Below, one piece after another: positions 16,299 to 58,804 of a stretch of DNA of 64,000 nucleotides. Each line of letters opens with the position of its first letter. The stretch's first letter is position 1. The notes beneath the pieces were generated by a model. It saw only the letters and a program-made list of their open reading frames with translations, ran no database searches and was not told where the DNA came from. The stretch is taken from NCBI RefSeq assembly GCF_009728485.1, contig NZ_VVIQ01000007.1, positions 62,001-126,000 on the forward strand. The letters are read 5' to 3'. This DNA is from Prevotella vespertina. GTDB lineage: Bacteria; Bacteroidota; Bacteroidia; Bacteroidales; Bacteroidaceae. The position numbers were made by a program, and so were the translations under genes.

Positions 16299-16386
16299 AT
16301 GACTCGTATGTAATAACGAAATGACTCGTATGTGTCAGTGCCTGTTACTCGTATGTGTCAAAGGGGCTAACACATACGTGTCAATT
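16299..16386. repeat. 22-bp module array, ACTCGTATGTGTCA family
   Basis: Units start at 16299, 16321, 16343 and 16365. The first three carry ACTCGTATGT in the same place; the fourth carries the core inverted (ACACATACGTGTC). The spacing is exactly 22 bp. The core has weak dyad symmetry (TGAC...GTCA). Confidence 0.8.
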
Positions 16387-16420
16387 TAGTAGGTCTAGCG
16401 TCAAGGAATTTGAGAACGCA

Positions 16421-16454
16421 TGAAGGCTTGGCACTAGATTGTACCAAGCCTTCA
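16421..16454. terminator. Hairpin downstream of the GH20 gene
   Basis: A perfect 11-bp stem, TGAAGGCTTGG / CCAAGCCTTCA. A second short dyad, TTCGCC/GGCGAA (16474-16492), lies closer to the GH20 stop at 16502. Either could end the GH20 transcript; neither has a strong T-run on the minus strand. Confidence 0.45.
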
Positions 16455-16501
16455 GTTTCTTCTTATTCATACGTTCGCCGTGATAAGGCGAATCCGTCGA
16501 C

Positions 16502-18598
16502 TTACTTCTTATTGATGATAATCTCATCAGTGAAGATCCACGCATCTGGCTCACGCGAGGTGGCTTTCAAACGCACATAACGCGCCCGTACCGAACCCTT
16601 CCAGCGATAGGGATAAACAAGGTAGTCGCTGTCTGTCTTGATACCAGGGAGCGTCTTATCTATTGTGGTAAACTTCTTTCCATCCTTTGAGACAAGTAGT
16701 GTTATGGTGTTAGGAACATAGATGACAGCCTCCAGCTGGTGCATGAAGTTGGCTTCCACATCCTTGATATCAGTTACCTTCCCCATGTCAACAATCACGT
16801 CAACGCCTGTGCTATCTATGAAGCCCTGCCATCTTCCCTCAAGGTAGCCCCAGTCGCCACACAATCCATTGGTCAGCGTACTATCGCCTTCTGCACGATA
16901 TTTCTCAGCGTATCGACCGAGATAGGTCACGGGCTTACCCAAACCTTCATGCTGCACGATGGAACGGCTTTCAGGGCGTGCGCCTTTCTCTTTTCGAATG
17001 TCGAAAGCATTATAGCCAGCACGTTTGAGCGCATCAGTTGCCGTAATTACTCGTTGACGGAAGTCGGCATAGCCTGTACGTTGCTTCGTCCATCCCGTCT
17101 CGGCTAGTGCAAGTAATCGGGGGTATATCATATACTCTAAATGGTCAGGTTTCTCTATGAATTCCGTCCATACACAACCCTGTACACCATCAATATATTT
17201 CTCCAAAGACGTACCCTTATAAGCCGCTGGGATAGGGTCATAGTTGTAAGTCTTCTCCAATCTCGTATATCCTCCTTGCGCCTTTGGTTCCGTCATGGGG
17301 TCGTCCTGATACATATTCAAATAGCAGAACTCTTGCGGTGCCATGACCACGTGATGCCCACTCTTAGCGGCAGTCAATCCTGCTTCAGTGCCACGCCATG
17401 ACATGACAGCGGCATTGGGAGCCAAGGTACCTTCCATGATTTCATCCCATCCGAGGAGCTTTCTGCCATTATCGTTGAGGAAGCGTTCTATGCGGTGAGT
17501 GAAATGACTCTGTAACTCGGCTACGTCCTTTAGATGATAGTCCTTCATCACACGCTGACAGTCGGGACAGGTCTTCCATGTGCGGCGTTCAGCCTCATCG
17601 CCTCCTATGTGAATGTACTTTGAAGGGAAGAGTTGCATTACCTCCTTCAATACATTCTCCATGAAGGTATAGGTCTGTTCTTTCCCTACGCATAAATCTG
17701 ACTGAGTATAGGGCTTACCCGTACATGACAACTCTGGGTAAGCATAGACAACCTCATCACTGTGCCCAGGCATTTCAATCTCTGGTATGATGGTGATATG
17801 GCGTGCAGCGGCATAATCGACAATCTCTTTAATGCCGTCCTGCGTGTAATAGCCACCATGTATATTCATTCCCTTCCAACATACGAGGCTATCAGGATCA
17901 GGCGAATACTGGCGGTTCTTTCTGTTCCACCACTTCGTCCAGTCAGATTCTGTTCTATAGGCAGTCTCCTCTGTTAGGCGTGGATATTGCTTCACTTCCA
18001 TGCGCCATCCACCGCCGTCAGTGAGGTGCCAGTGGAATCTGTCAAGCTTGAAGTACGCCATAGCGTCCAGTTGCTTCTTGATTTCATCTTTCCACCAGAA
18101 GTGTCTTGAGCAGTCTATCATCAGACCACGATAAGCGAAACGGGGTGTATCTGTTATCTTTACGCAAGGAATCTGGCGGTCCTGCTCCAGCTGTCGTAGT
18201 GTTTGCAAACCATAGAAAAGTCCCATAGGAGTTCTCGCCTGTATGGTCACTGCTGTTGGCGTAACATTTAATTCATACCCTTGTAGACTTACGCTATCTG
18301 CCGCCATCGCTGCCTCCTGTTCCGTACCAGTACAGATGAGGCGCAAGGGTGCATCAGCAGAAGGGTTCTTTACGGATGAGAACGGGATACTCATTACATC
18401 TGAGGTGTACTGATTCAGTGTCTTGAAGTCCTCTCCTTTAAGATTGGTCACGCCTTGTAGCCCCTTAGCCAATGTGAAAGTGCCTTGCTGACGAGTGATA
18501 CTCTCGGGTTGAGGGATAATGCTCTGCGCACAGACAGGTTGTGTGATTGACGCTGATAATAGCAAGAATGCTGCGCCTATAAATACTTTTTTAATCAT
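16502..18598 (-). CDS. GH20 beta-N-acetylhexosaminidase with C-terminal F5/8C-like domain
   Basis: 698 residues. Signal peptide at 1-24; GH20b-type N-terminal domain to about 150; catalytic TIM barrel at about 150-510 with the Asp-Glu pair in HIGGDEAE (D334, E335) and the barrel start YRGLMIDCSRHFW; then a beta-sandwich C-terminal domain (about 550-698) resembling discoidin/F5/8C domains (ITLLVSKDGKKFTTID, RARYVRLKATS). It removes terminal GlcNAc or GalNAc by substrate-assisted catalysis. Placed between two GH92 genes, it fits removal of antennary GlcNAc from N-glycans before mannose trimming. Only 57 bp separate it from the upstream GH92 gene, so they are probably co-transcribed. Confidence 0.94.
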   Translation of the reverse strand: MIKKVFIGAAFLLLSASITQPVCAQSIIPQPESITRQQGTFTLAKGLQGVTNLKGEDFKTLNQYTSDVMSIPFSSVKNPSADAPLRLICTGTEQEAAMAADSVSLQGYELNVTPTAVTIQARTPMGLFYGLQTLRQLEQDRQIPCVKITDTPRFAYRGLMIDCSRHFWWKDEIKKQLDAMAYFKLDRFHWHLTDGGGWRMEVKQYPRLTEETAYRTESDWTKWWNRKNRQYSPDPDSLVCWKGMNIHGGYYTQDGIKEIVDYAAARHITIIPEIEMPGHSDEVVYAYPELSCTGKPYTQSDLCVGKEQTYTFMENVLKEVMQLFPSKYIHIGGDEAERRTWKTCPDCQRVMKDYHLKDVAELQSHFTHRIERFLNDNGRKLLGWDEIMEGTLAPNAAVMSWRGTEAGLTAAKSGHHVVMAPQEFCYLNMYQDDPMTEPKAQGGYTRLEKTYNYDPIPAAYKGTSLEKYIDGVQGCVWTEFIEKPDHLEYMIYPRLLALAETGWTKQRTGYADFRQRVITATDALKRAGYNAFDIRKEKGARPESRSIVQHEGLGKPVTYLGRYAEKYRAEGDSTLTNGLCGDWGYLEGRWQGFIDSTGVDVIVDMGKVTDIKDVEANFMHQLEAVIYVPNTITLLVSKDGKKFTTIDKTLPGIKTDSDYLVYPYRWKGSVRARYVRLKATSREPDAWIFTDEIIINKK

Positions 18599-18655
18599 GA
18601 CTATAGTGTCGTTGTGGTGGGATATACGATAGGTATTAGCCTCGAATGCCCCACC

Positions 18656-20914: not shown

Positions 20915-20991
20915 AAAAAACATGCAGTTAATAGTTATTGCTGCCATGGTACATGAATGAAAAGGACTATGGCGAGCCTATATGAAAATGA

Positions 20992-21040
20992 CTACGCACA
21001 TCTCTGACATTATATGATAATACACCGAAGATGTGCGTAG
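20992..21040 (-). terminator. Hairpin after the GH130 gene
   Basis: A perfect 12-bp inverted repeat (CTACGCACATCT at 20992-21003, complement at 21029-21040) lies 26 bp past the GH130 stop. No strong T-run, so it may be an attenuator or processing site. Confidence 0.45.
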
Positions 21041-21065
21041 CTCCGCCTTACAAGTAGGTTGATAC

Positions 21066-22040: not shown

Positions 22041-22091
22041 TATAAATAGTTTTATGTTTTTAGCTTGTGAATACCACTCAATTTTCGCAAG

Positions 22092-22099
22092 CAAAGTTA
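22092..22099 (-). promoter_or_regulatory. -7 promoter box of the GH130/glycan block
   Basis: The minus strand reads TAACTTTG, a perfect TAnnTTTG box, 52 bp before the ATG at 22040. It fixes the GH130 start. Confidence 0.55.
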
Positions 22100-22159
22100 A
22101 CTTTTTACTTCTACATAGAATAAGAATTTATTATTCCTTAATTAGGAAAAACACTTATT

Positions 22160-22643
22160 AACGGGATATAAAGGCAGATCCGACCGCTTTAAAAACAAGT
22201 ATATACGGGAGAAAGAGGAAAGCAATACGGGTAGAGAAGACGGGCAATACGGGAAGAAAAGAAAGAGAATACGGAAGGAAAAGAAAGGGAATACGGCAAG
22301 CATGATAATTTTATCCGTATCTTTTCTTGCTTTTATACGTATTTTGTTATACTTTTGTACGTATGTAATTTCATTTTCAGCATAGTGAGAAAATAATTTC
22401 AGCGTAGTGATAGTATAATTTCAGCATAGTGAAAATGTTTCACCAGCGTTGAGAAAATATAATTTGATACGGGCTAAATGATGATAGAATACGGATTAAA
22501 TTATAACAGAATACGTATCGAATTATGACGGAATACGCTTCCGACTGCGAAAATATACGAATCAAACAGCCAAAGAATATGCTTACAAATGGAAAAGAAA
22601 GCGTATCTGACGGCGAAAACATACATAAGGGAAAGAAAAGTAA
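22160..22643. repeat. 22-bp module array of about 20-22 units, TACG-anchored
   Basis: Units fall at 22160 + 22n without a phase slip. Anchors are TACGG at 22204, 22226, 22248, 22270 and 22292; TCCGT at 22314; TACGT at 22336 and 22358; GCATAG/GCGTAG/GCGTTG at 22380, 22402, 22424 and 22446; TACGG/TACGT/TACGC/TACGA at 22468, 22490, 22512, 22534 and 22556; then TATGC, AGCGT and TACAT. Neighbouring units are alike (a purine-rich group, an AATTTCAGCATAGTGA group, an ATTATAACAGAATACG group), yet all groups keep one phase. It fills the region between the divergent GH130 and HU-like genes. Confidence 0.85.
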
Positions 22644-22661
22644 ACAAAATTATAAAAGGTT

Positions 22662-23276
22662 ATGAGCATCAAATACAGACTACAAAAGAATTACGGAAAG
22701 CTGAAGGAGAAGGCTGAATTTCGGGCAATCGTTATGGAGCGACAGACCATTGGATTGGAACGCATTGGGCAGAACATACAAGGTGCAATGTCTCTTACAC
22801 GAGCGGATGTTTTCGCAACGGTTATGGCTCTGGGAGATGAAATAGCCCATCAACTATTGGACGGAAACGCTGTCCATCTGCCGGGTATCGGTTATTTCTC
22901 GCTGGCTGTGAAAGGTGAGGTGTACGAGGATCCGCGCACACACAATCATCGATTGCGTAACCCGAAAGTGCGAACGATAAAGTTCCGCCCCGATCGTGAA
23001 ATGGCGCATAAGCTCCTTTCTGCCAAATTCGAGAACGAAACTCATCATTACGGCAATGCCTCCATTCCAACAGCCGAAGACATCGACCAAGCACTTGAGG
23101 AACTTTTCGCCGCAAAGTCTGTCATTACCATTGCCGACCTTCGCCGGTATCTCAATCTTTCCGCTTCTACAGCTTATCGCATTGCGGAACGATTGGAAGC
23201 GGCTGGCAGAATCCATAATATTGGGACGCGCCGACTAAAGTTGTTTGAGTTGAAGAGTAAACAAGTGGACGAGTAG
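22662..23276 (+). CDS. HU/IHF-like DNA-binding protein with winged-helix C-terminus
   Basis: 204 residues. Residues 1-125 match the extended HU-like family of Bacteroidetes: GLERIGQNIQGAMSLTRADV, then the beta-arm region GNAVHLPGIGYFSLAVKGEV and RLRNPKVRTIKFRPDREM. Residues about 135-200 form a helix-turn-helix/winged-helix unit (ITIADLRRYLNLSASTAYRI, AERLEAAGRIHNIG). It should bind DNA as a nucleoid or regulatory protein. The last residues (SKQVDE and stop) are encoded by an 8-bp repeat array, so the tail is probably repeat-derived. The gene starts 18 bp after the long 22-bp array. Confidence 0.85.
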   Translation: MSIKYRLQKNYGKLKEKAEFRAIVMERQTIGLERIGQNIQGAMSLTRADVFATVMALGDEIAHQLLDGNAVHLPGIGYFSLAVKGEVYEDPRTHNHRLRNPKVRTIKFRPDREMAHKLLSAKFENETHHYGNASIPTAEDIDQALEELFAAKSVITIADLRRYLNLSASTAYRIAERLEAAGRIHNIGTRRLKLFELKSKQVDE

Positions 23277-23294
23277 ACAAGTTGACGAGTTAAT
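23255..23294. repeat. 8-bp period array overlapping the end of the HU-like gene
   Basis: Five consecutive octamers of the form RAGTNGAC (GAGTAAAC, AAGTGGAC, GAGTAGAC, AAGTTGAC, GAGTTAAT). The stop codon at 23274-23276 lies within the third. The same octamer family forms the larger array at 54.5 kb. Confidence 0.75.
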
Positions 23295-23312
23295 AGCATT
23301 TACAGCCTTTTC

Positions 23313-23344: not shown

Positions 23345-23361
23345 CACCGACTTTCAAAGCG

Positions 23362-23444
23362 GAAGTTAGGGGGTGCTTGCCTGTTTGGGCTTGCTGAGAA
23401 TATACCCATTGACCTGATACGGGTAATGCCGTCGTAGGGAAAAA
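23362..23444 (+). ncRNA. TPP (thiamine pyrophosphate) riboswitch
   Basis: The conserved THI-element core is present in order: GGGGGTGC (23369-23376), CTGAGA (23394-23399), ACCC, ACCTGAT (23412-23418), GGGTAATGCC (23421-23430) and CGTAGGGA (23433-23440). It lies 12 bp after the predicted transcription start and about 40 bp before the receptor gene, so it should repress the receptor-PnuT-kinase operon when TPP is abundant. CCCC at 23446-23449 could pair with the GGGGG run, a possible expression-platform contact (inference). Confidence 0.97.
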
Positions 23445-23482
23445 TCCCCTTATTTATATTTTAATATCATCACTAGAAGGAT

Positions 23483-25867
23483 ATGAAAAGAATTATCCTA
23501 TTCACTGCTGCATTAACATGTGTAGCAACTACAAAGGCACAGGAAGTAACTGACACGCTCAAGCAACAGCACTTGGAAGAGGTAATAGTCGCTGGAGTTC
23601 GAGTACAAAAGAATGCTCCTTATGCAGTGGCTAACATCAAGAAATCAGAACTTGAGGCTTTCTCTAAAACGGGACGTGAATTACCTTTCTTATTAGCTCA
23701 AACGCCGGGCGTGTTAGCTTGGGGTGAGAACGGATTAGGAACGGGTACCGCCGCTATGCGCATACGAGGCGCAGCAGGAAGTCGCATTAATATCACCTTA
23801 GACGGTGTGGCTTTAAACTCGCCAGAAGATCAGACAGTTTTCTGGGCAAACATGAACTCATACGCTTCGCTTATGGGAAGCGTACAGATACAGCGCGGTA
23901 TCGGAACATCTACAAACGGCGATGGTGCTTTCGGCGGTTCGGTTTCTTTGGCGACGAGTTCACCCATGAGAACGCCGAGCGCAGAGGTCAGTGCATCATA
24001 CGGTTCGTATAACACTTACAACGCAGGAATGAAGTTCTCAACGGGTTTGCTCTTCAATCATCTTATCTTTGATGGGGCATATCACGAGACAGCCACCGAT
24101 GGTTATGTCCACGGCACAAGCGGGCGGTCGGGTTCTTACTATGGCGGTTTGACTTGGTTAGGGGATAACTTCCGTATTAGCTACAAGAACATCGGAAACT
24201 TTGAGAAGACGGGGCAGGCTTGGTATGGAGTTGTCGCTGGTAGCGGCGATCTTAGTTTGATGGATGGTACTTTCGGGGTACATACGGGTATTAAAACTTA
24301 CAAGGATCTTTACGATAGAGGATTAGGCAAATTCAATTCCCTATACGAGTATTTGCAGACAGACAATAATGGTGCTTTCGTCAAAGATGCTGCTGGGAAT
24401 TATCAAACGGAACGATTTAAGATGCGTGATGGTTCGTTTTGGAAGAAGACTACCGATAACTTCTATCAGAATCACAACATCCTTTCTTTCCTTATTCATC
24501 CTGCACAGCATTGGAGCCATAACATAACCTTACATTATACTTATGGTTATGGTTATTACAGCGAGTTCAAACGGAAAACAAAGCTGGCTAAATTTGGTTT
24601 GCAATTCACCGATAATACTGGCACGCAGATAGCAAAGACTGACCTCGTGCGTCGTAAGGGTTTGTCACAACACACCTACGGCGTTATCTATAATCTCAAC
24701 TATAAAGATGAAAGCTGGGATGTGATGGGTGGCTTGAATCTTCAACAGTTCCGAGGGGATCACTTCGGATATCTTACTTATATCAAAGACCAACAGGTTG
24801 ACAACAAGTTCCGACCTAACGGCAAGGATTATAAGTATTATTCCTCTGACGCTCGTAAGTTCGATTACAGCGGTTTCTTCAAAGCTAATTACCACTTTAA
24901 CAACTACTGGAATACGTTTATCGACCTTCAGTATCGCCGCGTGGAATATAGAACCAATGGCAAAAATGATAGATTCCGTAAAGATGCCAACGGATACCAT
25001 AATCAACTGTTGAATATCAATAAGCATTATGACTTTATCAATCCTAAAGCGGGCGTAAGTTACTATCGTGATGGGCACAAGGCTTATGCATCCATTGCCT
25101 ATGCTAACCGTGAACCTGAACGCAATAACTTTACCGACAATGGTAGTTACCCAGCACCTTCGCCAGAACGATTGATGGATATAGAGCTTGGCTATCAGTA
25201 CACAGGTAATAACTGGCATGCTGGCGTAAACCTTTATTATATGGACTATACGAATCAGTTTGTGCAGACAGGCGAGAAGAGTGACATCGGCGAGAATCTT
25301 ACCACAAACATCAAGAACAGCTATCGTATGGGTGCCGAGTTGGAAGCTGGCTGGAGTCCGTTATCATGGTTGACTGTCGAAGGTAACGCTGCGTTAAGTC
25401 GCAATGTTATTAAGGACTTCGACGAGATGGCAAGTGTCAACTTTGATGATTCCTTCCGCAAGATTCATTATAATCACTCTACTTTGGCGTTCTCTCCATC
25501 AGCCATCCTCAATGGCTTCCTCGATTTGCATTACAAAGGCATTAAGGCTGTATGGCATACAAACTTCGTCAGTCGCCAGTATCTCGACAACACCGAGAAT
25601 ATAACCCGTTCGTTGCCTTGCTATTCGCAGACGAATGTCAACATCAGCTACTTTCTCCGTCCTGCAAAGCATCTTATCGGTTTGAAAGAAGCTATCTTTG
25701 GCGTGAATCTTAACAACATCTTCAATCGCCATTATGCTGCCAGCGGAGGAGTATATAGCACTATCCTCGACAATGACGGTCATCCTAACGAGAACCGTTA
25801 TACGCAACTGGGCTTCATCCCAATGGCAGGATTTAATGTGATGGGGAGTGTTGCGTTGAAGTTTTAA
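23483..25867 (+). CDS. TonB-dependent outer-membrane receptor, probably for thiamine
   Basis: 794 residues: signal peptide at 1-19 (MKRIILFTAALTCVATTKA), plug domain at about 40-150 (FLLAQTPGVLAWGENGLGTG, MRIRGAAGSRINITLDG) and a beta-barrel ending in an aromatic strand (GFNVMGSVALKF). There is no N-terminal carboxypeptidase-like domain, so it is not SusC-type. It sits directly behind a TPP riboswitch and before PnuT and thiamine pyrophosphokinase, the arrangement of the Bacteroides thiamine uptake operon, so it most likely imports thiamine or a phosphate ester. The substrate is inferred from regulation and neighbours. Confidence 0.9.
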   Translation: MKRIILFTAALTCVATTKAQEVTDTLKQQHLEEVIVAGVRVQKNAPYAVANIKKSELEAFSKTGRELPFLLAQTPGVLAWGENGLGTGTAAMRIRGAAGSRINITLDGVALNSPEDQTVFWANMNSYASLMGSVQIQRGIGTSTNGDGAFGGSVSLATSSPMRTPSAEVSASYGSYNTYNAGMKFSTGLLFNHLIFDGAYHETATDGYVHGTSGRSGSYYGGLTWLGDNFRISYKNIGNFEKTGQAWYGVVAGSGDLSLMDGTFGVHTGIKTYKDLYDRGLGKFNSLYEYLQTDNNGAFVKDAAGNYQTERFKMRDGSFWKKTTDNFYQNHNILSFLIHPAQHWSHNITLHYTYGYGYYSEFKRKTKLAKFGLQFTDNTGTQIAKTDLVRRKGLSQHTYGVIYNLNYKDESWDVMGGLNLQQFRGDHFGYLTYIKDQQVDNKFRPNGKDYKYYSSDARKFDYSGFFKANYHFNNYWNTFIDLQYRRVEYRTNGKNDRFRKDANGYHNQLLNINKHYDFINPKAGVSYYRDGHKAYASIAYANREPERNNFTDNGSYPAPSPERLMDIELGYQYTGNNWHAGVNLYYMDYTNQFVQTGEKSDIGENLTTNIKNSYRMGAELEAGWSPLSWLTVEGNAALSRNVIKDFDEMASVNFDDSFRKIHYNHSTLAFSPSAILNGFLDLHYKGIKAVWHTNFVSRQYLDNTENITRSLPCYSQTNVNISYFLRPAKHLIGLKEAIFGVNLNNIFNRHYAASGGVYSTILDNDGHPNENRYTQLGFIPMAGFNVMGSVALKF

Positions 25868-26617: not shown

Positions 26618-27358
26618 ATGATTATCAATAACAAAGAGAATAACAAGAACAAACAACATCCTCACATCCCCAACGAACACCCCGTTAGGCTCTCCCCTCC
26701 TTTCGGAGGGGTCGGGGGAGGCTTTTGTGCCGTCATCCTAGCAGCTGGCGACTTCCCCACCCACGTCCTACCCCTTCGCATCCTACGCACTACGGATAAT
26801 CTCATAGTATGCGATGGCGCACTCACGGAGCTACTTGAATATGAGATAGAGCCAACGGCAGTAGTGGGCGATGGCGACTCACTCTCTGAAGAACTGAAAC
26901 AACGCTATGCACACATCTATCATCATATATCAGAACAAGAGTTTAACGACCTCACCAAGGCGACTCTCTTTGCTCGTTCGCATCTGAAGATGGACGCATC
27001 CACCCATACCCGCCCCCGCTTCTGCTACCTCGGAGCAACTGGCAAACGGGAAGATCACACACTAGGGAACATATCTCTCATGCTCTACTACTATCGTCAG
27101 TTGGCTATCGACCCAGTGATGATAACCGACTATGGCTATTTCGTAGCAGCATCGGGCACTATGCGCTTTGAATCTTTTCCTGGACAGCAAGTCAGCATCT
27201 TCAACGCTACCTGCAAAGAGCTATCCAGCAACGGGCTCAAATGGGACATCTATCCATTCAACGAACTATGGCAAGGAACGCTGAACGAAGCCTTATCAAA
27301 TGAGTTCACAATCCATGCCGATGGTGATTATCTCATCTACCGAACACATAAAGTATAA
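26618..27358 (+). CDS. Thiamine pyrophosphokinase with repeat-encoded N-terminal extension
   Basis: Converts imported thiamine to TPP. The catalytic part starts near residue 37 (CAVILAAGDFP) and shows LIVCDGALTEL, AVVGDGDSLSEEL, EFNDLTKATLFA and the GATGKREDHTLGN motif, then the B1-binding C-terminal strand domain. No ATG, GTG or TTG occurs in frame between the ATG at 26618 and the domain. Residues about 25-36 (RLSPPFGGVGGGF region) are encoded by the REP-like copy at 26693-26723. So either the N-terminal 36 residues are genuinely translated or a non-standard start is used. The 172-bp gap from pnuT holds the paired repeat. Confidence 0.88.
   Translation: MIINNKENNKNKQHPHIPNEHPVRLSPPFGGVGGGFCAVILAAGDFPTHVLPLRILRTTDNLIVCDGALTELLEYEIEPTAVVGDGDSLSEELKQRYAHIYHHISEQEFNDLTKATLFARSHLKMDASTHTRPRFCYLGATGKREDHTLGNISLMLYYYRQLAIDPVMITDYGYFVAASGTMRFESFPGQQVSIFNATCKELSSNGLKWDIYPFNELWQGTLNEALSNEFTIHADGDYLIYRTHKV
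26693..26723. repeat. Inverted REP-like copy within the 5' end of the thiamine pyrophosphokinase gene
   Basis: It reads TCCCCTCCTTTCGGAGGGG then TCGGGGGAGGCT, the reverse complement of the copy at 26452 with few changes. CCGTTAGG just upstream matches, inverted, the GCCTAACGG beside that copy. Confidence 0.85.
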
Positions 27359-27421: not shown

Positions 27422-27536
27422 TTCTTTTATAATTGAATATTGCTGTACAATAATCCCTCTACCCTATCACAACCACCCTCTTTCCGTACTATTAGTATAA
27501 AGTTGGACAGAAATAATATACAATCAGGAAAAATCC

Positions 27537-27646
27537 TACCTCCGTTTTTAATAAAACGTACCTCCATTTTCGGTAAAACGTACCTCCGTTTTCGCCAAAA
27601 CGATAGTACTTTTTACTTAAAACGATAGTACCTTTTTTCTAGAAAC
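27537..27646. repeat. 22-bp module array, ACGTACCTCCGTTTTCG family
   Basis: TACCTCC at 27537, 27559 and 27581, then ATAGTAC at 27603 and 27625, all 22 bp apart; weaker units may continue to 27668 and back to 27493. Most units hold a small dyad CGTTTT-NNNN-AAAACG. The array lies between convergent genes (gap 27359-27939). The remaining stretch 27669-27840 shows nothing recognisable. Confidence 0.8.
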
Positions 27647-39284: not shown

Positions 39285-40022
39285 ATGGAAACTATCAATT
39301 CAAGAAGAACTATAAGACGATATTCTCAAGAGGATGTATCGGATGACTTGTTAAGAGAACTCCTATCGGTTGCAGAGAGAACACCAACTATGGGCAACCT
39401 GCAACTCTATTCGGTCGTTATCACCCGAAGCCTGGAAATAAAGAAGAAGATCGCTCCGGCACACTTCAATCAACCAATGGTTACAGAGGCACCAGTCGTT
39501 CTTACCTTCTGTGCGGACTATCGTCGAACAACCTCATGGGCAACACAAAGAAAGGGAACACCTGGTTATGATAACTTCTTATCATTCCTAAATGCGGCGA
39601 CAGATGCCCTTCTTTATTGCCAAACTTTCTGTAATCTCGCTGAAGAAAGGGGCTTGGGAACCTGCTTCCTGGGTACTACGATCTATAGTCCAAAAGCGTT
39701 AATTGAAGCACTCGAGTTGCCTCGTTTGGTAATGCCTGTTGCTACTATCACCTTGGGATGGGCTGCTGAAACACCCAAGCAGACCGATCGTTTGCCATTG
39801 AAAAGTATTATTCACAATGAGACTTACAACGATTATACACCCGAGAGAATAGACGAGTTTTACATGCAAAAGGAGAACTTGAAAGAGAATAAGGACTTCG
39901 TTGAACTGAACAAAAAAGAAACACTTGCACAGGTATATACCGATATTCGTTATACAAAGAAGGATAACGAGGCTATGTCTGTGGGCTTGCTTGAAGCACT
40001 AAGACAGCAGGGGTTCCTCTAA
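39285..40022 (+). CDS. Nitroreductase family (FMN-dependent) oxidoreductase
   Basis: 245 residues from the ATG at 39285; the upstream extension to 39180 overlaps nrdJ and the promoter. The NfsA-like pattern is METINSRRTIRRYSQEDVSD (the Arg-Arg FMN phosphate contact), LLSVAERTPTMGNLQLYSVV, AEERGLGTCFLGT and MPVATITLGWAAETP. It is likely a dimeric NAD(P)H flavoenzyme in the cytoplasm; the true substrate is unknown. Its stop codon coincides with the first base pair of the 22-bp array downstream. Confidence 0.9.
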   Translation: METINSRRTIRRYSQEDVSDDLLRELLSVAERTPTMGNLQLYSVVITRSLEIKKKIAPAHFNQPMVTEAPVVLTFCADYRRTTSWATQRKGTPGYDNFLSFLNAATDALLYCQTFCNLAEERGLGTCFLGTTIYSPKALIEALELPRLVMPVATITLGWAAETPKQTDRLPLKSIIHNETYNDYTPERIDEFYMQKENLKENKDFVELNKKETLAQVYTDIRYTKKDNEAMSVGLLEALRQQGFL

Positions 40023-40130
40023 GGAGACGCCTTCCTTATATTAAAGAGGGCGTTTCTTCCCATCAAAGAGAGGCTTCCTTCATAGCAAGGAAACGCCCTC
40101 TTCAATACAAAGAATAAGTTATCTTACCTT
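40021..40130. repeat. 22-bp module array, AAAGAGGGCGTTTC family
   Basis: Units start at 40021, 40043, 40065, 40087 and 40109. AAAGAGGGCGTTTCTTCC (40043) and GGAAACGCCCTCTT (40089) are inverted versions of one module; the first and third are variants, the fifth is weak. Five units fill the intergenic space from the nitroreductase stop to the GSCFA start. The inverted pair can also form a long hairpin. Confidence 0.8.
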
Positions 40131-46973: not shown

Positions 46974-47064
46974 ATATTCTTCTTATTATTTGCACGGTCA
47001 TAAACACCTTACAAACAGAGGAAAAGAATACCTTTATATACAAAGCATACACAAACAAGCATTC

Positions 47065-47174
47065 AATAGAGCGTTCCCTCCATTTCAAGAGAGCCTCTCT
47101 TCCACCCGAAGAGAGGCTCTTCTCGCAGGAAGGAAAGGCTCTCTTCATTTCGAGCAGACGCCCTTCTGCAATGC
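47065..47174. repeat. 22-bp module array, AAGAGAGCCTCTCTTC family
   Basis: Units start at 47065, 47087, 47109, 47131 and 47153. The second and third are an inverted pair giving a 13-bp perfect hairpin (47090-47102 with 47108-47120) that could also serve as terminator of the cupin operon. The modules are related to those at 40.0 and 56.0 kb. The array ends just before the ettA promoter. Confidence 0.8.
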
Positions 47175-49016: not shown

Positions 49017-50342
49017 TTACTTACTTTTCTTATTCAGCAGCACATACCCACCTATTCCGCCTAAGATGGAGGCGAGGAAGATACCCAACTTTGCTTGTGT
49101 CATCAATAGCTCGTCGGTGAAGGCGAGGGTAGAGATGAACATTGACATGGTGAAGCCGATAGAGGCAAGCATACCTAAGCCCAGCAGTGTGCGACGAGTG
49201 ATGGCACTTGGAAGGGTTGCCCAACGCATTTTTACCATTAAGAAAGTTGCTCCGATAATACCAATCGGTTTTCCTAAGAGCAGACCCAATGTCACTCCGA
49301 GTGCTACGTGGGTAGAGAAGATGTCAGATAGACTTAAATCCGTGAAGCTGATACCAGCATTGGCAATTGCAAAGATAGGCATGATCAAGAAGGTAACGAT
49401 AGGTGACATCTTATGTTCAAGCTGTTGCAGCAAAGGTATTGCAATCTCGGTGTCGTGCTGTATATGTGTCAGCACGTCCACCTGTCCCTCCTCCAAGGTT
49501 CTCACCTCGTTAGGTACCTCTTTCTCGAAACGTCTTGTCAGTTTCTTCATACGCTTGAGATAGACCGACTCATTAATCTTTGCATCGGCTGGAATCATGA
49601 AGGCGGCGAGTACGGCAGCAATCGTTGCGTGGATTCCTGACAGCAAGAAGGTTACCCATACACCACCGATACCGAGTACGGCATAGAAGAATAGGCTCTT
49701 GATACCGAGTCTGTTTCCTATAAACATCACTGCAAGAAAGCACAAACCAAAGAGCAAACTCGCAATAGAGAGTTCGGAAGTGTAGAAGAAGGCGATGACA
49801 AGCACAGCCCCAAGGTCGTCTACTATGGCAAGCGTTGTAAGGAAAACCTTTGCCGATACAGGTACTTTATCGACCAAAAGATATACTACTCCTAAGGCAA
49901 AAGCAATGTCAGTTGCCATCGGTATACCCCATCCCATCGTTTGTGGGGTACCTATGTTCAGACTTAAAAATATCAAGGCAGGTACAATCATACCGCCTAT
50001 TGCTGCTCCGATAGGTAGAATGGTGTTTCTGATGTCAGCCAGTTCGCCTCCGATAAACTCTCTTTTCAACTCTAAGCCGACCACAAAGAAGAACATAGCC
50101 ATTAAGCCATCATTAATCCAATGGTGCAGACTACAATTCAGATACGGCTCTCCGTTGACGATAAATCCTACTTTCTGCTCAAAGATATGGAAATAGCTCT
50201 CAGCAATATTGCTGTTTGCCAATATCATTGCTAAGGCGACACTGAGAATCAGAACGATACCTCCTGACTTCTCCCTACCCATAAACAGCTTTATCGGTAG
50301 CATCAAATGCTGGTTTAGCTTCTTTTCAACTCGTTGTCTCAT
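49017..50342 (-). CDS. nhaA: NhaA Na+/H+ antiporter
   Basis: 441 residues with 11-12 membrane helices. It has the NhaA marks GGIVLILSVALAMILANS, GLELKREFIGGEL, GWGIPMATDIAFALGVVYLL and the paired-Asp helix TTLAIVDDLGAVLVIAFFYT that carries the transported ions. The C-terminal TM core (GLGMLASIGFTMSMFISTLA) is intact. A polar insert around residues 260-290 separates the halves. It exports Na+ in exchange for H+ across the inner membrane. Confidence 0.95.
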   Translation of the reverse strand: MRQRVEKKLNQHLMLPIKLFMGREKSGGIVLILSVALAMILANSNIAESYFHIFEQKVGFIVNGEPYLNCSLHHWINDGLMAMFFFVVGLELKREFIGGELADIRNTILPIGAAIGGMIVPALIFLSLNIGTPQTMGWGIPMATDIAFALGVVYLLVDKVPVSAKVFLTTLAIVDDLGAVLVIAFFYTSELSIASLLFGLCFLAVMFIGNRLGIKSLFFYAVLGIGGVWVTFLLSGIHATIAAVLAAFMIPADAKINESVYLKRMKKLTRRFEKEVPNEVRTLEEGQVDVLTHIQHDTEIAIPLLQQLEHKMSPIVTFLIMPIFAIANAGISFTDLSLSDIFSTHVALGVTLGLLLGKPIGIIGATFLMVKMRWATLPSAITRRTLLGLGMLASIGFTMSMFISTLAFTDELLMTQAKLGIFLASILGGIGGYVLLNKKSK

Positions 50343-50642: not shown

Positions 50643-50660
50643 GTTGGTTGGTCTATTTGT

Positions 50661-53159: not shown

Positions 53160-53204
53160 ATTTCTAGCGTTTTGTTTCTTCTAAAGTATGCGTATTAATG
53201 CGTG

Positions 53205-53212
53205 CAAAGTTA
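53205..53212 (-). promoter_or_regulatory. -7 promoter box of the YfhO-like gene
   Basis: The minus strand reads TAACTTTG, with a TTG 18 bp upstream. Confidence 0.55.
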
Positions 53213-53255
53213 CAAAAAACAAAGTACTTACAACATCCAACTTCTAACTTTTTCG

Positions 53256-53263
53256 TACCTTTG
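53256..53263 (+). promoter_or_regulatory. -7 promoter box of mtnN-luxS
   Basis: TACCTTTG ends 4 bp before the ATG at 53268, so the transcript would be leaderless or nearly so. Confidence 0.5.
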
Positions 53264-53267
53264 CAGT

Positions 53268-53966: not shown

Positions 53967-54016
53967 GGAGTGAGTACCTCGTTACACAGCAATATAACAA
54001 CAAAAAGAAAGCAACT

Positions 54017-54502
54017 ATGAACAAGATTCCATCATTCACTATTGACCACGAGCGATTGCTACGTGGCATCTACGTAAGCCGTAAAGACGAGGTTGGCAAC
54101 GAGGTTGTTACGACCTTCGACATACGTATGAAGGAGCCAAACCGTGAGCCAGTGCTACACGTGGGGGCTATCCATACGATTGAGCATTTGGCTGCTACCT
54201 ATCTTCGTAACGACCCGGAATGGAAAGACCGAGTTGTGTATTGGGGACCAATGGGCTGCCTTACGGGTAATTACCTTATCCTTCAAGGCGACTTGGAGTC
54301 GAAGGATATTGTAGAACTCATGCGTCGCACCTTCCAATTCGTCGCTGATTACGAGGGCGAGATATCTGGTGCTGCACCACGCGACTGCGGTAACTATCTA
54401 CTACATGACCTCCCCATGGCTAAGTGGGAATCACGTAAATTCCTCACAGAGGTACTGGATAACATCACAGAAGCTCATCTTCTGTATCCGGAGAAAGAGT
54501 AG
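54017..54502 (+). CDS. luxS: S-ribosylhomocysteine lyase (AI-2 synthase)
   Basis: 161 residues with the metal-binding HTIEHLAATYLRN (His, His and Glu) and the catalytic Cys segment GPMGCLTGNYLI, plus ISGAAPRDCGNY near the C-terminus. It cleaves S-ribosylhomocysteine to homocysteine and DPD, the precursor of the AI-2 signal. Together with mtnN it completes the two-step recycling of S-adenosylhomocysteine. The stop lies at the edge of an 8-bp repeat array. Confidence 0.97.
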   Translation: MNKIPSFTIDHERLLRGIYVSRKDEVGNEVVTTFDIRMKEPNREPVLHVGAIHTIEHLAATYLRNDPEWKDRVVYWGPMGCLTGNYLILQGDLESKDIVELMRRTFQFVADYEGEISGAAPRDCGNYLLHDLPMAKWESRKFLTEVLDNITEAHLLYPEKE

Positions 54503-54605
54503 ACAAGTGGACGAGTAGACGGGTTGACAAGTTGACAAGTTGCTTGTAATGATAGCGACACGACCTATTAACTCGTCAACTCGTCTACCCGTTAACTCGT
54601 CAACC
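54498..54605. repeat. 8-bp period array with inverted second half
   Basis: The left half (54498-54542) is a run of octamers of form GACRRGTN; the right half (54569-54605) runs as ACTCGTCA, ACTCGTCT, ACCCGTTA, ACTCGTCA, the inverted form. The halves can pair into an imperfect hairpin of roughly 35 bp with a 26-nt loop between luxS and the MATE gene. Confidence 0.8.
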
Positions 54606-54622
54606 ACTAACATAACCACACC

Positions 54623-55975: not shown

Positions 55976-56035
55976 GCTGTCTTTGAATCCATTCCCAACA
56001 TCTCCAAAGGAAGGAAAAACGTATGGGTGCAAATT

Positions 56036-56145
56036 AAGAGAGCCTCTTCTCCATTTAAGGAAGGCGTTTCTTTGACATGAAGAAACGCCTTCTTCGCATT
56101 AAAGAGGGCGTTCCATCAAAACAAGCCAGACTTTCACAGCAAACT
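56036..56145. repeat. 22-bp module array, third AAGAGRGCG-type copy
   Basis: Units start at 56036, 56058, 56080, 56102 and 56124 (the last weak). GGAAGGCGTTTCTTTG (56059) and AAGAAACGCCTTCTT (56080) are opposite orientations of one module, forming a hairpin; GAGGGCGTT (56104) repeats the form seen at 40.0 kb. It lies between the convergent MATE and beta-barrel genes. Weak units may extend back to 55992. Confidence 0.8.
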
Positions 56146-56179
56146 TCCGTTAGACTAGAAGAAGGTAATAGAGCTGTTC

Positions 56180-56863
56180 TTACAAATCAAACTTATACCC
56201 TACAGAGACCTCAAAGACTTTATTGCGGGCGGTTAGTCCATATTTATAAGCATTAAGTACACCCACATTATAACGAGCATCTAACACCACATTCTCATAC
56301 TCATAACTGATACCAACGGGGATTGAAAGGGTGAAATTGCGTAGTCCTTTCTTAGTATCTATGTCTATCACACCCTCTTGCACATTCGTTCTATGCCCAT
56401 CTGCATCAAGGTCATAACTAAGCATTCCAGCATGATACTTACCATAGATTAAGAAAGAAGGAGCGACACCTACGTTGATTGAAAGTCCTGGCGCAATGTA
56501 AGAATGAGCCACAAGAGGAACCGAGATATAGTCCGTTCGAGCGTAATGATCGTGCCATATCACACCATTATCATCAACGTCCTTGTACTTACAACCAGCT
56601 TGGACGTAACTTAGACCGATAGATAATCCAACATTATCAGACACCTGATACATCACATCGACACCGCCTGTAAAACCTGGGCGAGCTTGTGGCTTCACCT
56701 CTTGAGATTGATTATCACCAACCTCTATACCGCCTGATTGATGAGTTAGAGAGGCTATCGACACACCAACATGAGGTATCACAGACCATCTTCCAATCTT
56801 ACTCTGCGCAAAAGAAGCTAACGAGATGGCACTCAAGAAAGCTAATGTAATTATCCGTTTCAT
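56180..56863 (-). CDS. Outer-membrane beta-barrel (porin-like, PorT-type) protein
   Basis: 227 residues: signal peptide at 1-19 (MKRIITLAFLSAISLASFAQ), then eight or so amphipathic strands (GRWSVIPHVGVSIASLTHQS, PGFTGGVDVMYQVSDNVGLS, IGLSYVQAGCKYKDV) and a terminal strand KVFEVSVGYKFDL. It fits the Bacteroidetes outer-membrane beta-barrel family (PF13568-type). Function unknown. Confidence 0.82.
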   Translation of the reverse strand: MKRIITLAFLSAISLASFAQSKIGRWSVIPHVGVSIASLTHQSGGIEVGDNQSQEVKPQARPGFTGGVDVMYQVSDNVGLSIGLSYVQAGCKYKDVDDNGVIWHDHYARTDYISVPLVAHSYIAPGLSINVGVAPSFLIYGKYHAGMLSYDLDADGHRTNVQEGVIDIDTKKGLRNFTLSIPVGISYEYENVVLDARYNVGVLNAYKYGLTARNKVFEVSVGYKFDL

Positions 56864-56968
56864 TGGGTTTTGAATGTTATTAAGTTAAAGATTACATCAT
56901 AGAAAACGATATTATTCGCTATTTATTATACTCTCCCTGCTTGCTCATCAGACTTAAATCCGCTTATC

Positions 56969-58183
56969 CTATAAACCTATTTTATTCAAGGTTAGGCTAT
57001 CTCGCTCCCCACCATAGAACGTTTTCAGGACTTCTTCAAAGATATCATTAGGACAAACTACGTCAAACAGCGTCATAGAAGATTTGAGTTTGACGGCATC
57101 AATACTACTCCCCATTACCCTTTTCACATCCATATTGCCATGCAACAAGACTGCTTTAATGATTGTGCGTAAGCGTTCGTTCAATAGTGGATAAGCTAGA
57201 TAAGTGTGTGCTTCATCGGTATCAGCCAACCCATAATACTGTGAATACGCACTGTGACCGAAGCCTTTTAGCTGTGGGAAAATAAACCATATCCAATGCG
57301 TCTGCTTGTGTCCTTGCTGCATTTCTGCCAATGCTTGGCGATAAGTATTGCTCGTATTCTGTGCTTCTATGAAACGTTCAATATTAAAAGGATCAGACTC
57401 TCGACAGCCCAACAAGTCTTCAAAATCATTAAGAACACCACGCAATTCGGGAGTCAGAAGGGCATAGCAATAACTTGAAAGCTTCTTCGGAATCACATAA
57501 AAGGCTTGGGCTATACCACCAGCCATTGCTGCTATCGTATCAGAATCGCCTCCTATAGATACCGCCGAACGTATCACACCTTCAAAGTTGGCACCCTCAA
57601 GGAATGCTAAAAGAGCCTGTGGGACAGTATGCTGACAAGACATATCATAGGAATAAGTAGGTCGGATATCATCCAATTGCTGACTTAAATCATAATGAAA
57701 GTTCTCCTCTACATAGCTCTTAATCTCCCTCTTCGTTGCTCCATGACGTGCAAGATAAATGGAGGAAGCGATTGCTTGTGCTCCTTTTATGCCTTCGGGA
57801 TGATTGTGTGTCACCTCTGCTGATATCTTCGCAAGCCCTAATGCTTCCTGTAAACTATGCGCATAGAACGCAACGGGGCTCACCCTCATAGCCGAGCCAT
57901 TCCCATAGCTATTATAAGGTTGAGGCTCTGGATTATACAACCAACGCATAAAACTACCAGCATAACCAGCCGTTGGATAACGCCTGCCAAGCTCTTGCAT
58001 GTGTTGAACCAGTGTTTCTTTGCGGTGCTCCTTATCGTCACACAGCCATCGAGACACAGCCAACGTCATCACCGTATCATCTGTGAATTTACTCTTCGGG
58101 GTAAACAAATGGAACTCTTTCCGCTTCGTATTCTTAAACTCATAGGCTGACCCTATGATGTCTCCAACTATTGCTCCTAACAT
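56969..58183 (-). CDS. ADP-ribosylglycohydrolase fused to a DUF1810 domain
   Basis: 404 residues. Residues 1-255 are an ADP-ribosylglycohydrolase: GAIVGDIIGSAYEF, KFTDDTVMTLAVSRWL and GGDSDTIAAMAGGIAQAF carry the acidic residues that bind two Mg ions. Residues about 265-400 match DUF1810 (FNIERFIEAQNTSNTYRQAL, THWIWFIFPQLKGFGHS, YPLLNERLRTIIKAVL, KLKSSMTLFDVV). It probably removes ADP-ribose from a modified target or hydrolyses a related compound; the role of the second domain is not known. No partner ADP-ribosyltransferase gene is nearby. Confidence 0.9.
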   Translation of the reverse strand: MLGAIVGDIIGSAYEFKNTKRKEFHLFTPKSKFTDDTVMTLAVSRWLCDDKEHRKETLVQHMQELGRRYPTAGYAGSFMRWLYNPEPQPYNSYGNGSAMRVSPVAFYAHSLQEALGLAKISAEVTHNHPEGIKGAQAIASSIYLARHGATKREIKSYVEENFHYDLSQQLDDIRPTYSYDMSCQHTVPQALLAFLEGANFEGVIRSAVSIGGDSDTIAAMAGGIAQAFYVIPKKLSSYCYALLTPELRGVLNDFEDLLGCRESDPFNIERFIEAQNTSNTYRQALAEMQQGHKQTHWIWFIFPQLKGFGHSAYSQYYGLADTDEAHTYLAYPLLNERLRTIIKAVLLHGNMDVKRVMGSSIDAVKLKSSMTLFDVVCPNDIFEEVLKTFYGGERDSLTLNKIGL

Positions 58184-58308
58184 AGACTAACCTTTTATTA
58201 TTTGAATCTCATACTGCCCTACTCTCGAAATAACTAACTAGTACCATTGGAGAGAGCCATGAACTCGGTTACAAAAATAAGTATAATCTGTTAATAAAGC
58301 AAGTAAGC

Positions 58309-58471
58309 TAAGGTTTTAGTCAATACTTTATTCATCGTAAAGACTAGTGCTTATTCCTTGCATATAAACAATGGAATAGAGGCGTAATAGACGTTTCTTG
58401 AAGAATTAAAGAGATTGTGAGATACCTCTATCTTCAAGGACTTTATTTATTTAGAAGTATTGACTAAGGTT
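58309..58471. repeat. MITE-like element with 13-bp terminal inverted repeats
   Basis: TTAGTCAATACTT (58316-58328) and AAGTATTGACTAA (58455-58467) are perfect inverted repeats, with TAAGGTT as a direct repeat at both edges (58309 and 58465). Inside are two interleaved pairs, ATAGAGG/CCTCTAT (58376, 58425) and CTTGAAGA/TCTTCAAG (58397, 58431), in a pseudoknot order. Confidence 0.5.
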
Positions 58472-58540
58472 CAAGGAAGTAGTACTATACGAATCGAGGA
58501 TTAGGCGTTAGCGCTTGTTAGAGTACCTGTTTGCATTTCA

Positions 58541-58804
58541 TTTCTCCTATACCTTCTTTTAATTACCTACTAGACTTGCGTCTTTTACATATATGTGTAT
58601 TCTTTGTTTCATCACGATGAGACATTAGTTTCATCATGATGAGACACAAGTTTCATCGTGATGAGACACTGATTTCATCATGATGAGACAAAGATTTCTT
58701 ACCAGAGTTTTTAATGCAAGGTATAGGAGAAAAAGACGCAAGATATAAGAGAGAAAGATGTAAGATATAGGAGAAGGAGATGCAAGATATAAGAGGAAAG
58801 GGGA
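58541..58804. repeat. 22-bp module array of 12 units with two unrelated module types
   Basis: Unit starts fall at 58541 + 22n. TTTCATCAYGATGAGACA occupies units at 58607, 58629, 58651 and 58673; (C/T)AAGRTATARGAG occupies those at 58717, 58739, 58761 and 58783; the unit at 58695 is a transition. Upstream units at 58541-58606 carry inverted pieces of the second module type (CTCCTATACCTT, CTTGCGTCTTTT). The phase never slips. The rest of the 770-bp gap (58184-58951) holds the MITE-like element and no gene. Confidence 0.85.

What the first reader, a model, noticed from the sequence alone, without database searches (positions are those of the whole stretch)
16299..58804. Seven intergenic arrays share an exact 22-bp module length although their sequences are unrelated
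Reading unit starts directly gives a spacing of exactly 22 bp in arrays at 16299, 22160, 27537, 40021, 47065, 56036 and 58541. Module cores differ (ACTCGTATGT, TACGG, TACCTCC, AAAGAGGGCGTTTC, TTTCATCAYGATGAGACA). Flanking gene pairs are convergent, divergent or co-directional, which argues against a simple promoter or terminator role. Many modules contain weak dyads. Twenty-two bp is about two helical turns, so every unit would face the same side of DNA. What stays constant is length, not sequence, which suggests either a fixed-length duplication mechanism or a protein that reads periodicity. The BrickBuilt MITE of Porphyromonas gingivalis, with tandem repeats of about 23 bp as I recall, is the nearest thing I know of.
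Basis: partly seen in the sequence, partly recalled or inferred. Interest (0 to 1): 0.93.

Follow-up and report, generated by a model that had tools for sequence, protein, structure and literature searches.

The report
Private 22-bp landing strips for HU-proteins
In the sampled part of this Prevotella genome about a fifth of the gaps between genes carry short, often near-palindromic DNA units repeated every 22 letters, and such an array stands beside 24 of 26 genes of an expanded HU-type protein family, so the arrays are likely the private binding sites of those proteins.

Summary
Six of the seven arrays have a 22-bp period; the one at 16299 mixes 22 and 23. A sample of 840.7 kb of this genome (a Prevotella near P. 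veroralis) holds 92 lag-22 segments, about 300 per genome by extrapolation. Lags 22 and 44 outscore all others. About two thirds of the segments are tandem dyads with conserved arms and looser linkers. The period, not the sequence, recurs in related genera; lag 22 was absent from samples of other orders.

The window's largest array ends 62 bp before an HU-HIG gene (PF18291: HU domain, here with a winged helix). The genome has 30 PF18291 matches. Of 26 non-canonical ones, 20 have a 21-23-bp array within 750 bp upstream and 4 have one downstream; 69 of 561 ordinary genes have one upstream. Close paralogues share the array sequence, distant ones mostly do not. Twenty-one dispersed arrays, including the window's 27529 and 58603, match an HU-HIG gene's own array.

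Best explanation: self-addressed operator lattices of HU-HIG proteins. Binding is inferred. The commonest array family (40021, 47065, 56036) has no partner found yet.

The parts
16297..16384 (.). short array of TGACTCGTATGTGTCA-like dyads, period 22 then 23; in P. veroralis DSM 19559 the same gap has 7 copies of another dyad unit, of which this genome has one copy just 5' of the array
   Evidence: not significant at lag 22 alone
22203..22599 (.). largest array of the 840.7-kb sample: about 18 units of 22 bp in one register (TACGG-type, TACGTA-type, TTTCAGCATAGTGAGAAA-type, TACGG-type again); putative operator of the HU-HIG gene at 22662
   Evidence: one unit shorter in DSM 19559
22662..23276 (+). 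HU-HIG protein (204 aa): HU/IHF-like domain 1-124 plus a winged helix-turn-helix around 138-198; candidate binder of the adjacent array
   Evidence: PF18291 91.5 bits; HU/IHF and winged-helix (ribosomal eS25) chains by profile; model pLDDT 83.4, pTM 0.55; Foldseek hits to HU, IHF and winged-helix proteins, none at E <= 0.001
27529..27644 (.). array of AAAACGATAGTACTTTTT / AAAACGTACCTCCGTTTT dyads; same family as the operator of the HU-HIG gene G000:C18:333894
   Evidence: match score 46, null maximum 29; printed side by side
40020..40114 (.). F1-family array (AAGAGAGSCTCTCTT-like dyads) between a nitroreductase gene and a GSCFA-family gene; no HU-HIG partner found
47062..47164 (.). F1-family array 5' of ettA; near-identical in DSM 19559; in P. 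histicola the same place has another dyad array, period 21
56031..56124 (.). F1-family array between convergent MATE and OMP beta-barrel genes; cores in both orientations at 22-bp spacing
   Evidence: (lag 44)
58541..58602 (.). left arm of a composite array: 22-bp bricks in register with the centre
   Evidence: register of the arms read by eye
58603..58700 (.). centre of the composite array: four GTTTCATCATGATGAGAC-like units; same family as the operator of HU-HIG gene G000:C21:168304
   Evidence: match score 57
58714..58800 (.). right arm of the composite array: ATGCAAGATATAAGAGAAAAAG bricks, partly inverted copies of the left arm, same register

Best explanation
The arrays are likely cooperative binding lattices of the HU-HIG family of HU-type DNA-binding proteins: each paralogue would recognise its own unit, and the HU body they share would set the common pitch of about 22 bp (two helical turns). 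Shown by sequence: the arrays, their period, the dyads in about two thirds of them, whole-unit length differences between strains at many loci, the expansion of HU-HIG genes in this clade, an array beside 24 of 26 HU-HIG genes of this genome, the same array sequence beside close paralogues, and 21 dispersed arrays of the same sequences elsewhere. Inferred: that the protein binds the array, that it represses or tunes its own gene there, that dispersed arrays are further targets, and that the pitch is dictated by the HU dimer. Arrays probably grow and shrink by slippage or unequal recombination in whole units, with selection keeping dyad cores in register. When a paralogue's specificity drifts, its arrays would be replaced by a new sequence with the same pitch, which would explain constant length with changing sequence.
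For: Genome-wide lag-22 signal. Dyad axes in non-ORF DNA lie 11, 22, 33, 44, 55 and 66 bp apart (148, 109, 88, 68, 46, 38 pairs against about 10 at most other spacings); 59 of 92 segments have dyad z > 2. Identity of neighbouring units is up to 0.78 in the arms and 0.50-0.54 in the linker. Between strains the arms differ at 59 of 1026 positions and linkers at 40 of 434 (Fisher p 0.022; 15 arrays). No strand asymmetry of G.T against A.C mismatches (175 and 162, no overdispersion), so a DNA-level rather than an RNA-level signal. PF18291 matches, canonical HU included: 30 here, 5-23 in 12 genomes of P. veroralis DSM 19559, other Prevotella, Segatella, Hallella, Paraprevotella, Alloprevotella, Bacteroides and Phocaeicola, 1-3 in 12 genomes of other orders, 0-3 in 6 of other classes, where lag 22 was absent from the samples. 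Of 26 non-canonical HU-HIG genes here, 20 have an array upstream and 4 downstream; 0 of 3 tested canonical or weak HU genes here, and 0 of 1 in DSM 19559, do. Upstream controls: 69 of 561 genes, p 6e-13; against genes with upstream gaps of at least 250 bp, 20 of 25 versus 55 of 180, p 3e-6. On the same 25 windows lags 17-19 give 1, lags 25-30 give 0 and lags 14-16 give 2. Pairs of proteins at least 80% identical share the operator in 7 of 8, pairs of 45-60% in 5 of 26, pairs under 45% in 1 of 136. 21 dispersed arrays match an HU-HIG operator above every null.
Against: No binding data. The commonest family (F1; window 40021, 47065, 56036) has no HU-HIG gene beside it in anything I read, and 66 of 92 segments match no operator I hold. 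Two of 26 HU-HIG genes have no array found (C2:6996, read on both sides; C1:21633, read upstream only), and several operator scores are low (C4:1343 is AT-rich and scores equally at lag 16; C20:3129, C22:39925, C17:260008 and C1:67987 score 19-22). In relatives, proteins whose match runs through the winged helix have arrays in 7 of 7, the rest in only 3 of 13 loci. The high-identity pairs are orthologues or recent duplicates, so shared flanking sequence may be plain descent; the reversed null reached 25 in 1 of 171 pairs. Only 12 of 22 operators and 59 of 92 segments are clearly dyadic. Arms (5.8%) do not evolve more slowly than other intergenic DNA under the same filter (1940 of 32102, 6.0%); they are slower only than linkers, centres (26 of 286) and array flanks (119 of 1387). 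Whole arrays are faster than other intergenic DNA (166 of 1576 against 1105 of 13817). HU-HIG copy number and array density correlate only weakly over 12 genomes (rho 0.59, p 0.04; two of one species, thresholds 14 and 16 mixed).
Confidence: 0.57

Rival explanations
1. Fixed-length duplication: a replication or repair process with a built-in ruler of about 22 nt duplicates whatever sequence is present, short hairpins above all, with no bound protein and no selection.
For: Each locus tends to have its own sequence (31 clusters among 92 segments); of 27 array loci with a length in both strains, 8 differ by an exact multiple of 22 bp; linkers are also alike between units (0.50-0.54); arms are not slower than other intergenic DNA.
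Against: Does not predict that 24 of 26 HU-HIG genes carry an array nor the matches between operators and dispersed arrays. Arms change more slowly than linkers. In composite elements bricks of different sequence and orientation appear to keep one register (by eye).
Confidence: 0.19
2. MITE-like mobile elements of the BrickBuilt kind: arrays are internal minisatellites of non-autonomous transposons and spread by transposition.
For: The composite family is dispersed in 8 loci of the sample; some arrays are absent or replaced between strains; BrickBuilt has 23-nt tandem units.
Against: No BrickBuilt repeat or TIR in the window. Families share a period and no sequence. I did not search systematically for terminal inverted repeats or target duplications.
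Confidence: 0.1
3. RNA-level elements: hairpin arrays in transcripts that act as terminators, 3' stabilisers or processing sites.
For: Arrays are commonest in convergent gaps (26 of 65) and lie nearer the upstream gene in co-directional gaps (median 108 against 162 bp); both strands fold better than mononucleotide shuffles (mean z -3.9 and -4.0).
Against: Both strands fold equally well; G.T and A.C mismatches are balanced (175 and 162; 56 and 39 in the longest stems). Arrays fill long divergent gaps (8 of 10 of 500-2000 bp). No Rfam match at an array in the window. Symmetric double changes barely exceed slid controls.
Confidence: 0.08
4. Each family is the operator of an unrelated classical regulator, and the association with HU-HIG genes reflects only that HU-HIG genes are heavily regulated.
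For: F1 and other families have no HU-HIG partner found.
Against: Would need dozens of unrelated regulators with one common 22-bp pitch; array sequence follows HU-HIG paralogy, as far as can tell it from descent.
Confidence: 0.05

Closest known systems
BrickBuilt of Porphyromonas gingivalis (PMC4596501; passages read)
   Same: Tandem units of nearly the same length (23 nt), intergenic, variable in copy number between strains; unit contains the perfect palindrome TCTCATATGAGA; at least one of its 19 copies borders a PF00216 gene (table seen in part).
   Different: One sequence family with leader, tail and IS5-like TIRs, described as a MITE. Here there are tens of sequence clusters, no such TIR in the window, and a systematic neighbour gene family.
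HU-HIG family, Pfam PF18291
   Same: The window protein at 22662 scores 91.5 bits against a 26.2 cut-off; 28 of 30 matches in this genome are over the cut-off.
   Different: Pfam describes only the domain ('HU domain fused to wHTH, Ig, or Glycine-rich motif'); no binding site or 22-bp lattice turned up in the listings of my literature searches.
Iterons of plasmid replication origins (recalled)
   Same: Direct repeats with about two-turn spacing near the gene of the protein that binds them, with autoregulation.
   Different: Chromosomal, about 300 per genome by extrapolation, tens of sequence clusters, next to HU-type rather than Rep genes.
HU and IHF nucleoid proteins (functions recalled; HU/IHF chains by profile)
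   Same: Same family of DNA-binding domain.
   Different: HU is largely non-specific and IHF binds single sites; here private tandem sites for many paralogues are proposed.
REP/BIME elements with RAYT transposases (recalled)
   Same: Intergenic palindromic units in clusters, commoner at 3' ends.
   Different: This genome has no Y1 transposase match (PF01797), units stand on a strict pitch, and sequences differ by locus.

Membership tests
HU-HIG (PF18291), for the protein at 22662-23276 | HMM match over the curated cut-off | tested here: met
   91.5 bits, cut-off 26.2, residues 1-124
HU-HIG (PF18291), for the protein at 22662-23276 | C-terminal fusion such as a winged helix | tested here: met
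   HTH_11 match at 143-184 below its cut-off (20.1 against 25 bits); winged-helix (eS25) chains by profile at 132-198; helices and strands of the model
HU-HIG operator lattice (proposed here) | 21-23-bp array beside the HU-HIG gene | tested here: met
   24 of 26 non-canonical genes in this genome; in relatives 7 of 7 winged-helix-type loci but 3 of 13 others (with P. histicola C50:96829)
HU-HIG operator lattice (proposed here) | Physical binding of the protein to its array | not testable with these tools
   needs gel shift, footprinting or ChIP
HU-HIG operator lattice (proposed here) | Dispersed arrays match the operator of some HU-HIG paralogue | tested here: inconclusive
   21 of 87 segments other than the 5 operators themselves score at least 31, null maximum 29; F1 and the other 66 do not
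BrickBuilt | 23-nt repeat consensus | tested here: not met
   0 matches in the window with up to 3 mismatches
BrickBuilt | IS5-like terminal inverted repeat GAGACCTTTGCA | tested here: not met
   0 matches in the window with up to 1 mismatch
REP/RAYT | Y1 (TnpA-REP) transposase in the genome | tested here: not met
   0 PF01797 matches in G000; 40 of the 61 genomes searched have one
CRISPR array | identical repeats with unique spacers of fixed length and cas genes | tested here: not met
   arms vary between units and only about 4-10 bp lie between them; cas genes were not sought
Plasmid iterons | Rep gene and replication origin | not tested
   arrays lie in many gaps of large contigs

The most novel reading that the evidence does not exclude
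HU, the archetype of the non-specific nucleoid protein, has in this clade of Bacteroidales radiated into a set of some two dozen sequence-specific proteins per genome, each writing its own private 22-bp lattice into the chromosome, first at its own gene and then at other gaps. The lattice pitch is a property of the HU body and is kept across genera, while the letters are rewritten in each lineage: a parallel, self-addressed nucleoid code in which length is conserved and sequence is not.
Probability: 0.37. Interest if true: 0.93.

Novelty: new variant of a known kind. Interest (0 to 1): 0.85.

Why it matters
It would give a function and a target to a large expanded family of HU-like proteins in Prevotella, Bacteroides and their kin. 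It would explain a class of intergenic minisatellites, possibly including BrickBuilt, that have been read as unrelated repeats or MITEs. It offers a rare case where a binding-site lattice conserves spacing and not sequence, so protein and site can be followed as they co-evolve. It is directly testable: each HU-HIG gene predicts its own binding site.

Tried and rejected
RNA hairpins and terminators: G.T against A.C mismatches balanced, both strands fold alike; the only Rfam match in the window is a TPP riboswitch away from the arrays. Pairing-type constraint (cruciform, hairpin): symmetric Watson-Crick-to-Watson-Crick double changes number 54 at the axis and 9-29 when slid, where fewer pairs start as Watson-Crick, so the excess is slight. 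RAYT/REP: no Y1 transposase. BrickBuilt membership. Register lock between dissimilar dyads by a pair-distance test: no excess at 22 among dissimilar pairs (8, in a background of similar size), so the register argument rests on contiguous composite arrays read by eye. A strict dyad threshold was too sparse to use. Arrays or their arms being more conserved than intergenic DNA in general: not so. One search read minus-strand loci in the wrong orientation; one search replaces it. Literature: ten searches; their listings show nothing on 22-bp palindromic arrays in Prevotella or on HU-HIG binding sites; a review of the HU superfamily that I recall is not held. Of PMC5771137 and PMC4596501 I saw passages; of other papers only the listings.
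Full report
What was checked. The window is G000:C22:62001-126000 of a 2.82-Mb, 24-contig genome. Its EttA protein is 100% identical to that of Prevotella veroralis DSM 19559; aligned DNA is 94-96% identical over that locus and 88-97% over further stretches. Seven arrays were claimed to share an exact 22-bp unit. Six do: 0 of 2000 shuffles reach the observed lag-22 identity for 22160, 27537, 40021, 47065, 56036 and 58541. The array at 16299 is a 22/23 mixture and fails that test (segments). Across the window lag 22 scores 348 and lag 44 scores 244, and nothing else from 10 to 60 exceeds 56.

Genome-wide. In 400 kb of contig C11, 55 non-ORF segments have lag 22; next by number are lags 44 (38 segments), 66 (12), 23 (11) and 11 (11). 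In 840.7 kb there are 92 lag-22 segments at a score of 18 or more, 87 of them mostly outside ORFs, or about 308 per genome by extrapolation; some neighbouring segments belong to one array. Of 390 gaps between genes of 60-2000 bp in this sample, 81 hold an array: 26 of 65 convergent, 44 of 255 co-directional, 11 of 70 divergent; none of the 44 divergent gaps under 300 bp does.

Anatomy. Distances between dyad axes in non-ORF DNA peak at 11, 22, 33, 44, 55 and 66 bp (148, 109, 88, 68, 46, 38 pairs against about 10 at most other spacings); the peaks at odd multiples of 11 follow automatically from palindromes repeated every 22. 59 of 92 segments are dyadic at z > 2 against column-permuted units. 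The arms, 2-8 bp from the axis, are alike between units (0.59-0.78) and the linkers less so (0.50-0.54). Cores range from TCACCATGGTGA and GTTTCATCATGATGAAAC to TTCTTCGCGAAGAA and CCTAAGTATCATACTTAGG. Ten printed loci (8 of this genome, 2 of DSM 19559, one of those cut off before its right side) show a composite of left bricks, palindromic centre and, in several, right bricks that are inverted left bricks; the central units are in register by computation, the arms by eye. The window's 58541-58800 array is one of these.

RNA or DNA. If transcripts were selected to fold, one strand of each array should prefer G.T over A.C mismatches. The totals are 175 and 162 with no overdispersion between 59 arrays (68.6 on 58), and both strands fold equally well. 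The signal is symmetric, as expected of double-stranded DNA sites. Compensatory double changes scarcely exceed slid controls, which speaks against hairpin or cruciform pairing as the constraint.

Change over time. Of 29 array loci found in both this genome and DSM 19559, 2 are split by very large length differences; of the other 27, 9 have the same length, 8 differ by an exact multiple of 22 bp (-22, -22, +22, +22, -44, -44, +44, -66) and 10 by other amounts. At least one of the eight (306285) is not a clean loss of units when aligned. Gaps inside aligned arrays include five of 22 bp and one of 21; no other intergenic gap in that comparison has 22. With a more permissive alignment, tandem-type insertions and deletions outside ORFs are 21-23 or 42-44 bp long in 13 of 14 cases, two of them in a GC-rich repeat of another kind. 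Where this genome has one GTATCATCAGCATGATAC-type unit next to the 16299 array, DSM 19559 has seven. Arms differ between the strains at 59 of 1026 positions, linkers at 40 of 434, centres at 26 of 286, array flanks at 119 of 1387 and other intergenic DNA at 1940 of 32102 (15 arrays, well-aligned positions only): arms are slower than the rest of the array and its flanks, not slower than intergenic DNA in general. Upstream of ettA, P. histicola has a different dyad array of period 21.

Breadth. Lag 22 is the leading tandem lag in non-ORF DNA of P. histicola (11 segments in 121 kb), P. jejuni (12 in 101 kb) and P. pallens (8 in 101 kb). It is weaker (2-3 segments in 81-101 kb) in Segatella, Hallella, Paraprevotella, two Bacteroides and Phocaeicola; in B. 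salyersiae lag 14 is as frequent. Alloprevotella had 3 at lag 21 and none at 22; 50 kb of E. coli had none. Of 61 lag-22 arrays in the loci of species other than P. veroralis, 40 are dyadic at z > 2. In 241 kb from other orders of the class there was no lag-22 segment (2 at lag 21, 1 at lag 23, AT-rich), and none at 21-23 in 120 kb from other classes.

The neighbour. The window's largest array, also the highest-scoring of the whole sample, ends 62 bp before a gene for an HU-HIG protein: HU domain by Pfam (91.5 bits), winged helix by profile and model, with Foldseek matches to HU, IHF and winged-helix proteins that stay above E 0.001. The genome has 30 PF18291 matches, 28 over the cut-off. I set aside four: C21:73681 (canonical HU by its sequence), C23:81102 (taken as canonical from its length) and two weak hits on C20. 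Of the remaining 26, 20 have a lag 21-23 array with score 18 or more within 750 bp upstream, 4 have one just downstream, and 2 have none found. C21:73681, C23:81102 and C20:175160, tested as controls, have none, nor has the canonical gene of DSM 19559. Of 561 ordinary genes 69 have one upstream, and 154 upstream or within 400 bp downstream (the few HU-HIG genes in the sample were not removed from this control); among genes with a long upstream gap, 55 of 180.

Private sequences. Three close paralogues (C18:45153, C21:91321, C23:108594) share CCTAAGTATGATACTTAGG; three others (C18:119078, C18:289294, C23:77137) share one TTCTTCGCGAAGAA array; orthologues in DSM 19559 and P. histicola share a 21-bp GATAATTAATTATC array. 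In one search, with 19 proteins that have an array (171 pairs), pairs at least 80% identical share their operator in 7 of 8 cases, the one pair of 60-80% does, pairs of 45-60% do in 5 of 26, pairs under 45% in 1 of 136; the reversed null reached the threshold once. The top class consists of orthologues and recent duplicates, where common descent of the flank is an alternative. In relatives the link is strong for the winged-helix type (7 of 7, plus P. histicola C50:96829) and weak for the rest (3 of 13).

Dispersed copies. Matching the 92 segments to 22 operators (21 of this genome, one of DSM 19559) gives 26 with a score of at least 31 and none between 20 and 30, where the null (arrays reversed without complement) never exceeds 29. 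Five of the 26 are the operators themselves; 21 are elsewhere. Two are in the window: 27529 matches the operator of C18:333894, and 58603 that of C21:168304 (printed).

How it would work (inferred). An HU-HIG dimer sits on one dyad; the next dimer sits two helical turns on, on the same face; cooperative filling of the lattice tunes the HU-HIG gene itself and, at dispersed arrays, marks or insulates other gaps. Pitch comes from the HU body, letters from the rest of the protein. Arrays change length by whole units because they are tandem, and persist where dyads stay in register.

What does not fit. F1 (AAGAGAGCCTCTCTT), the commonest family here and the one at 40021, 47065 and 56036, has no HU-HIG partner in anything I read. 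Its core is very frequent in P. veroralis DSM 19559 (207 hits counted on both strands, 12 in the reversed control), less so in P. histicola (21, control 3), and at control level in the other ten genomes of that search. It may belong to an HU-HIG protein whose gene lost its array, to an unread gene, or to another regulator. A minority of arrays and operators are not dyadic. No experiment was available.

Relation to what is known. BrickBuilt of P. gingivalis (PMC4596501, passages read) has a 23-nt unit that contains TCTCATATGAGA, and its copy 14 lies between PGN_0871 (-) and PGN_0872 (+), a PF00216 protein. It may be another member of this class carried inside a MITE; its own repeat and TIR are absent from the window.

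Noticed in passing
window 23359-23457 (+): TPP riboswitch (RF00059, 56.8 bits) just 5' of the TonB-dependent receptor gene at 23483; a thiamine diphosphokinase gene follows at 26618.
   Followed up: no
window 23255-23290 and 54497-54540: Two loci share a 16-bp tandem unit (GAGTAAACAAGTGGAC / GAGTAGACAAGTGGAC), a second repeat class with another period.
   Followed up: no
   Followed up: no
G000 and DSM 19559 stretches, e.g. G000:C11:350450-350490: GC-rich fragments (CCTCCCC...GGGGAGGCTGGG and GGACAGACGCCCTCGTCTGTCC) recur at strain differences in gaps: another repeat family.
   Followed up: no
L043-L119 (mostly gut and rumen Prevotella and allied loci): Tandem lags 14, 28 and 35 are frequent there (33, 9 and 7 segments), suggesting repeats built on 7 bp, unlike the 22-bp class; part of the lag-21 signal may come from them.
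   Followed up: no
window 49017-50342 (-): An NhaA-type Na+/H+ antiporter gene stands where P. veroralis DSM 19559 has a dyad array 3' of ettA instead.
   Followed up: partly
window 61308-63743 (-): Peptidase C10 with a Spi (I69) inhibitor domain.
   Followed up: no
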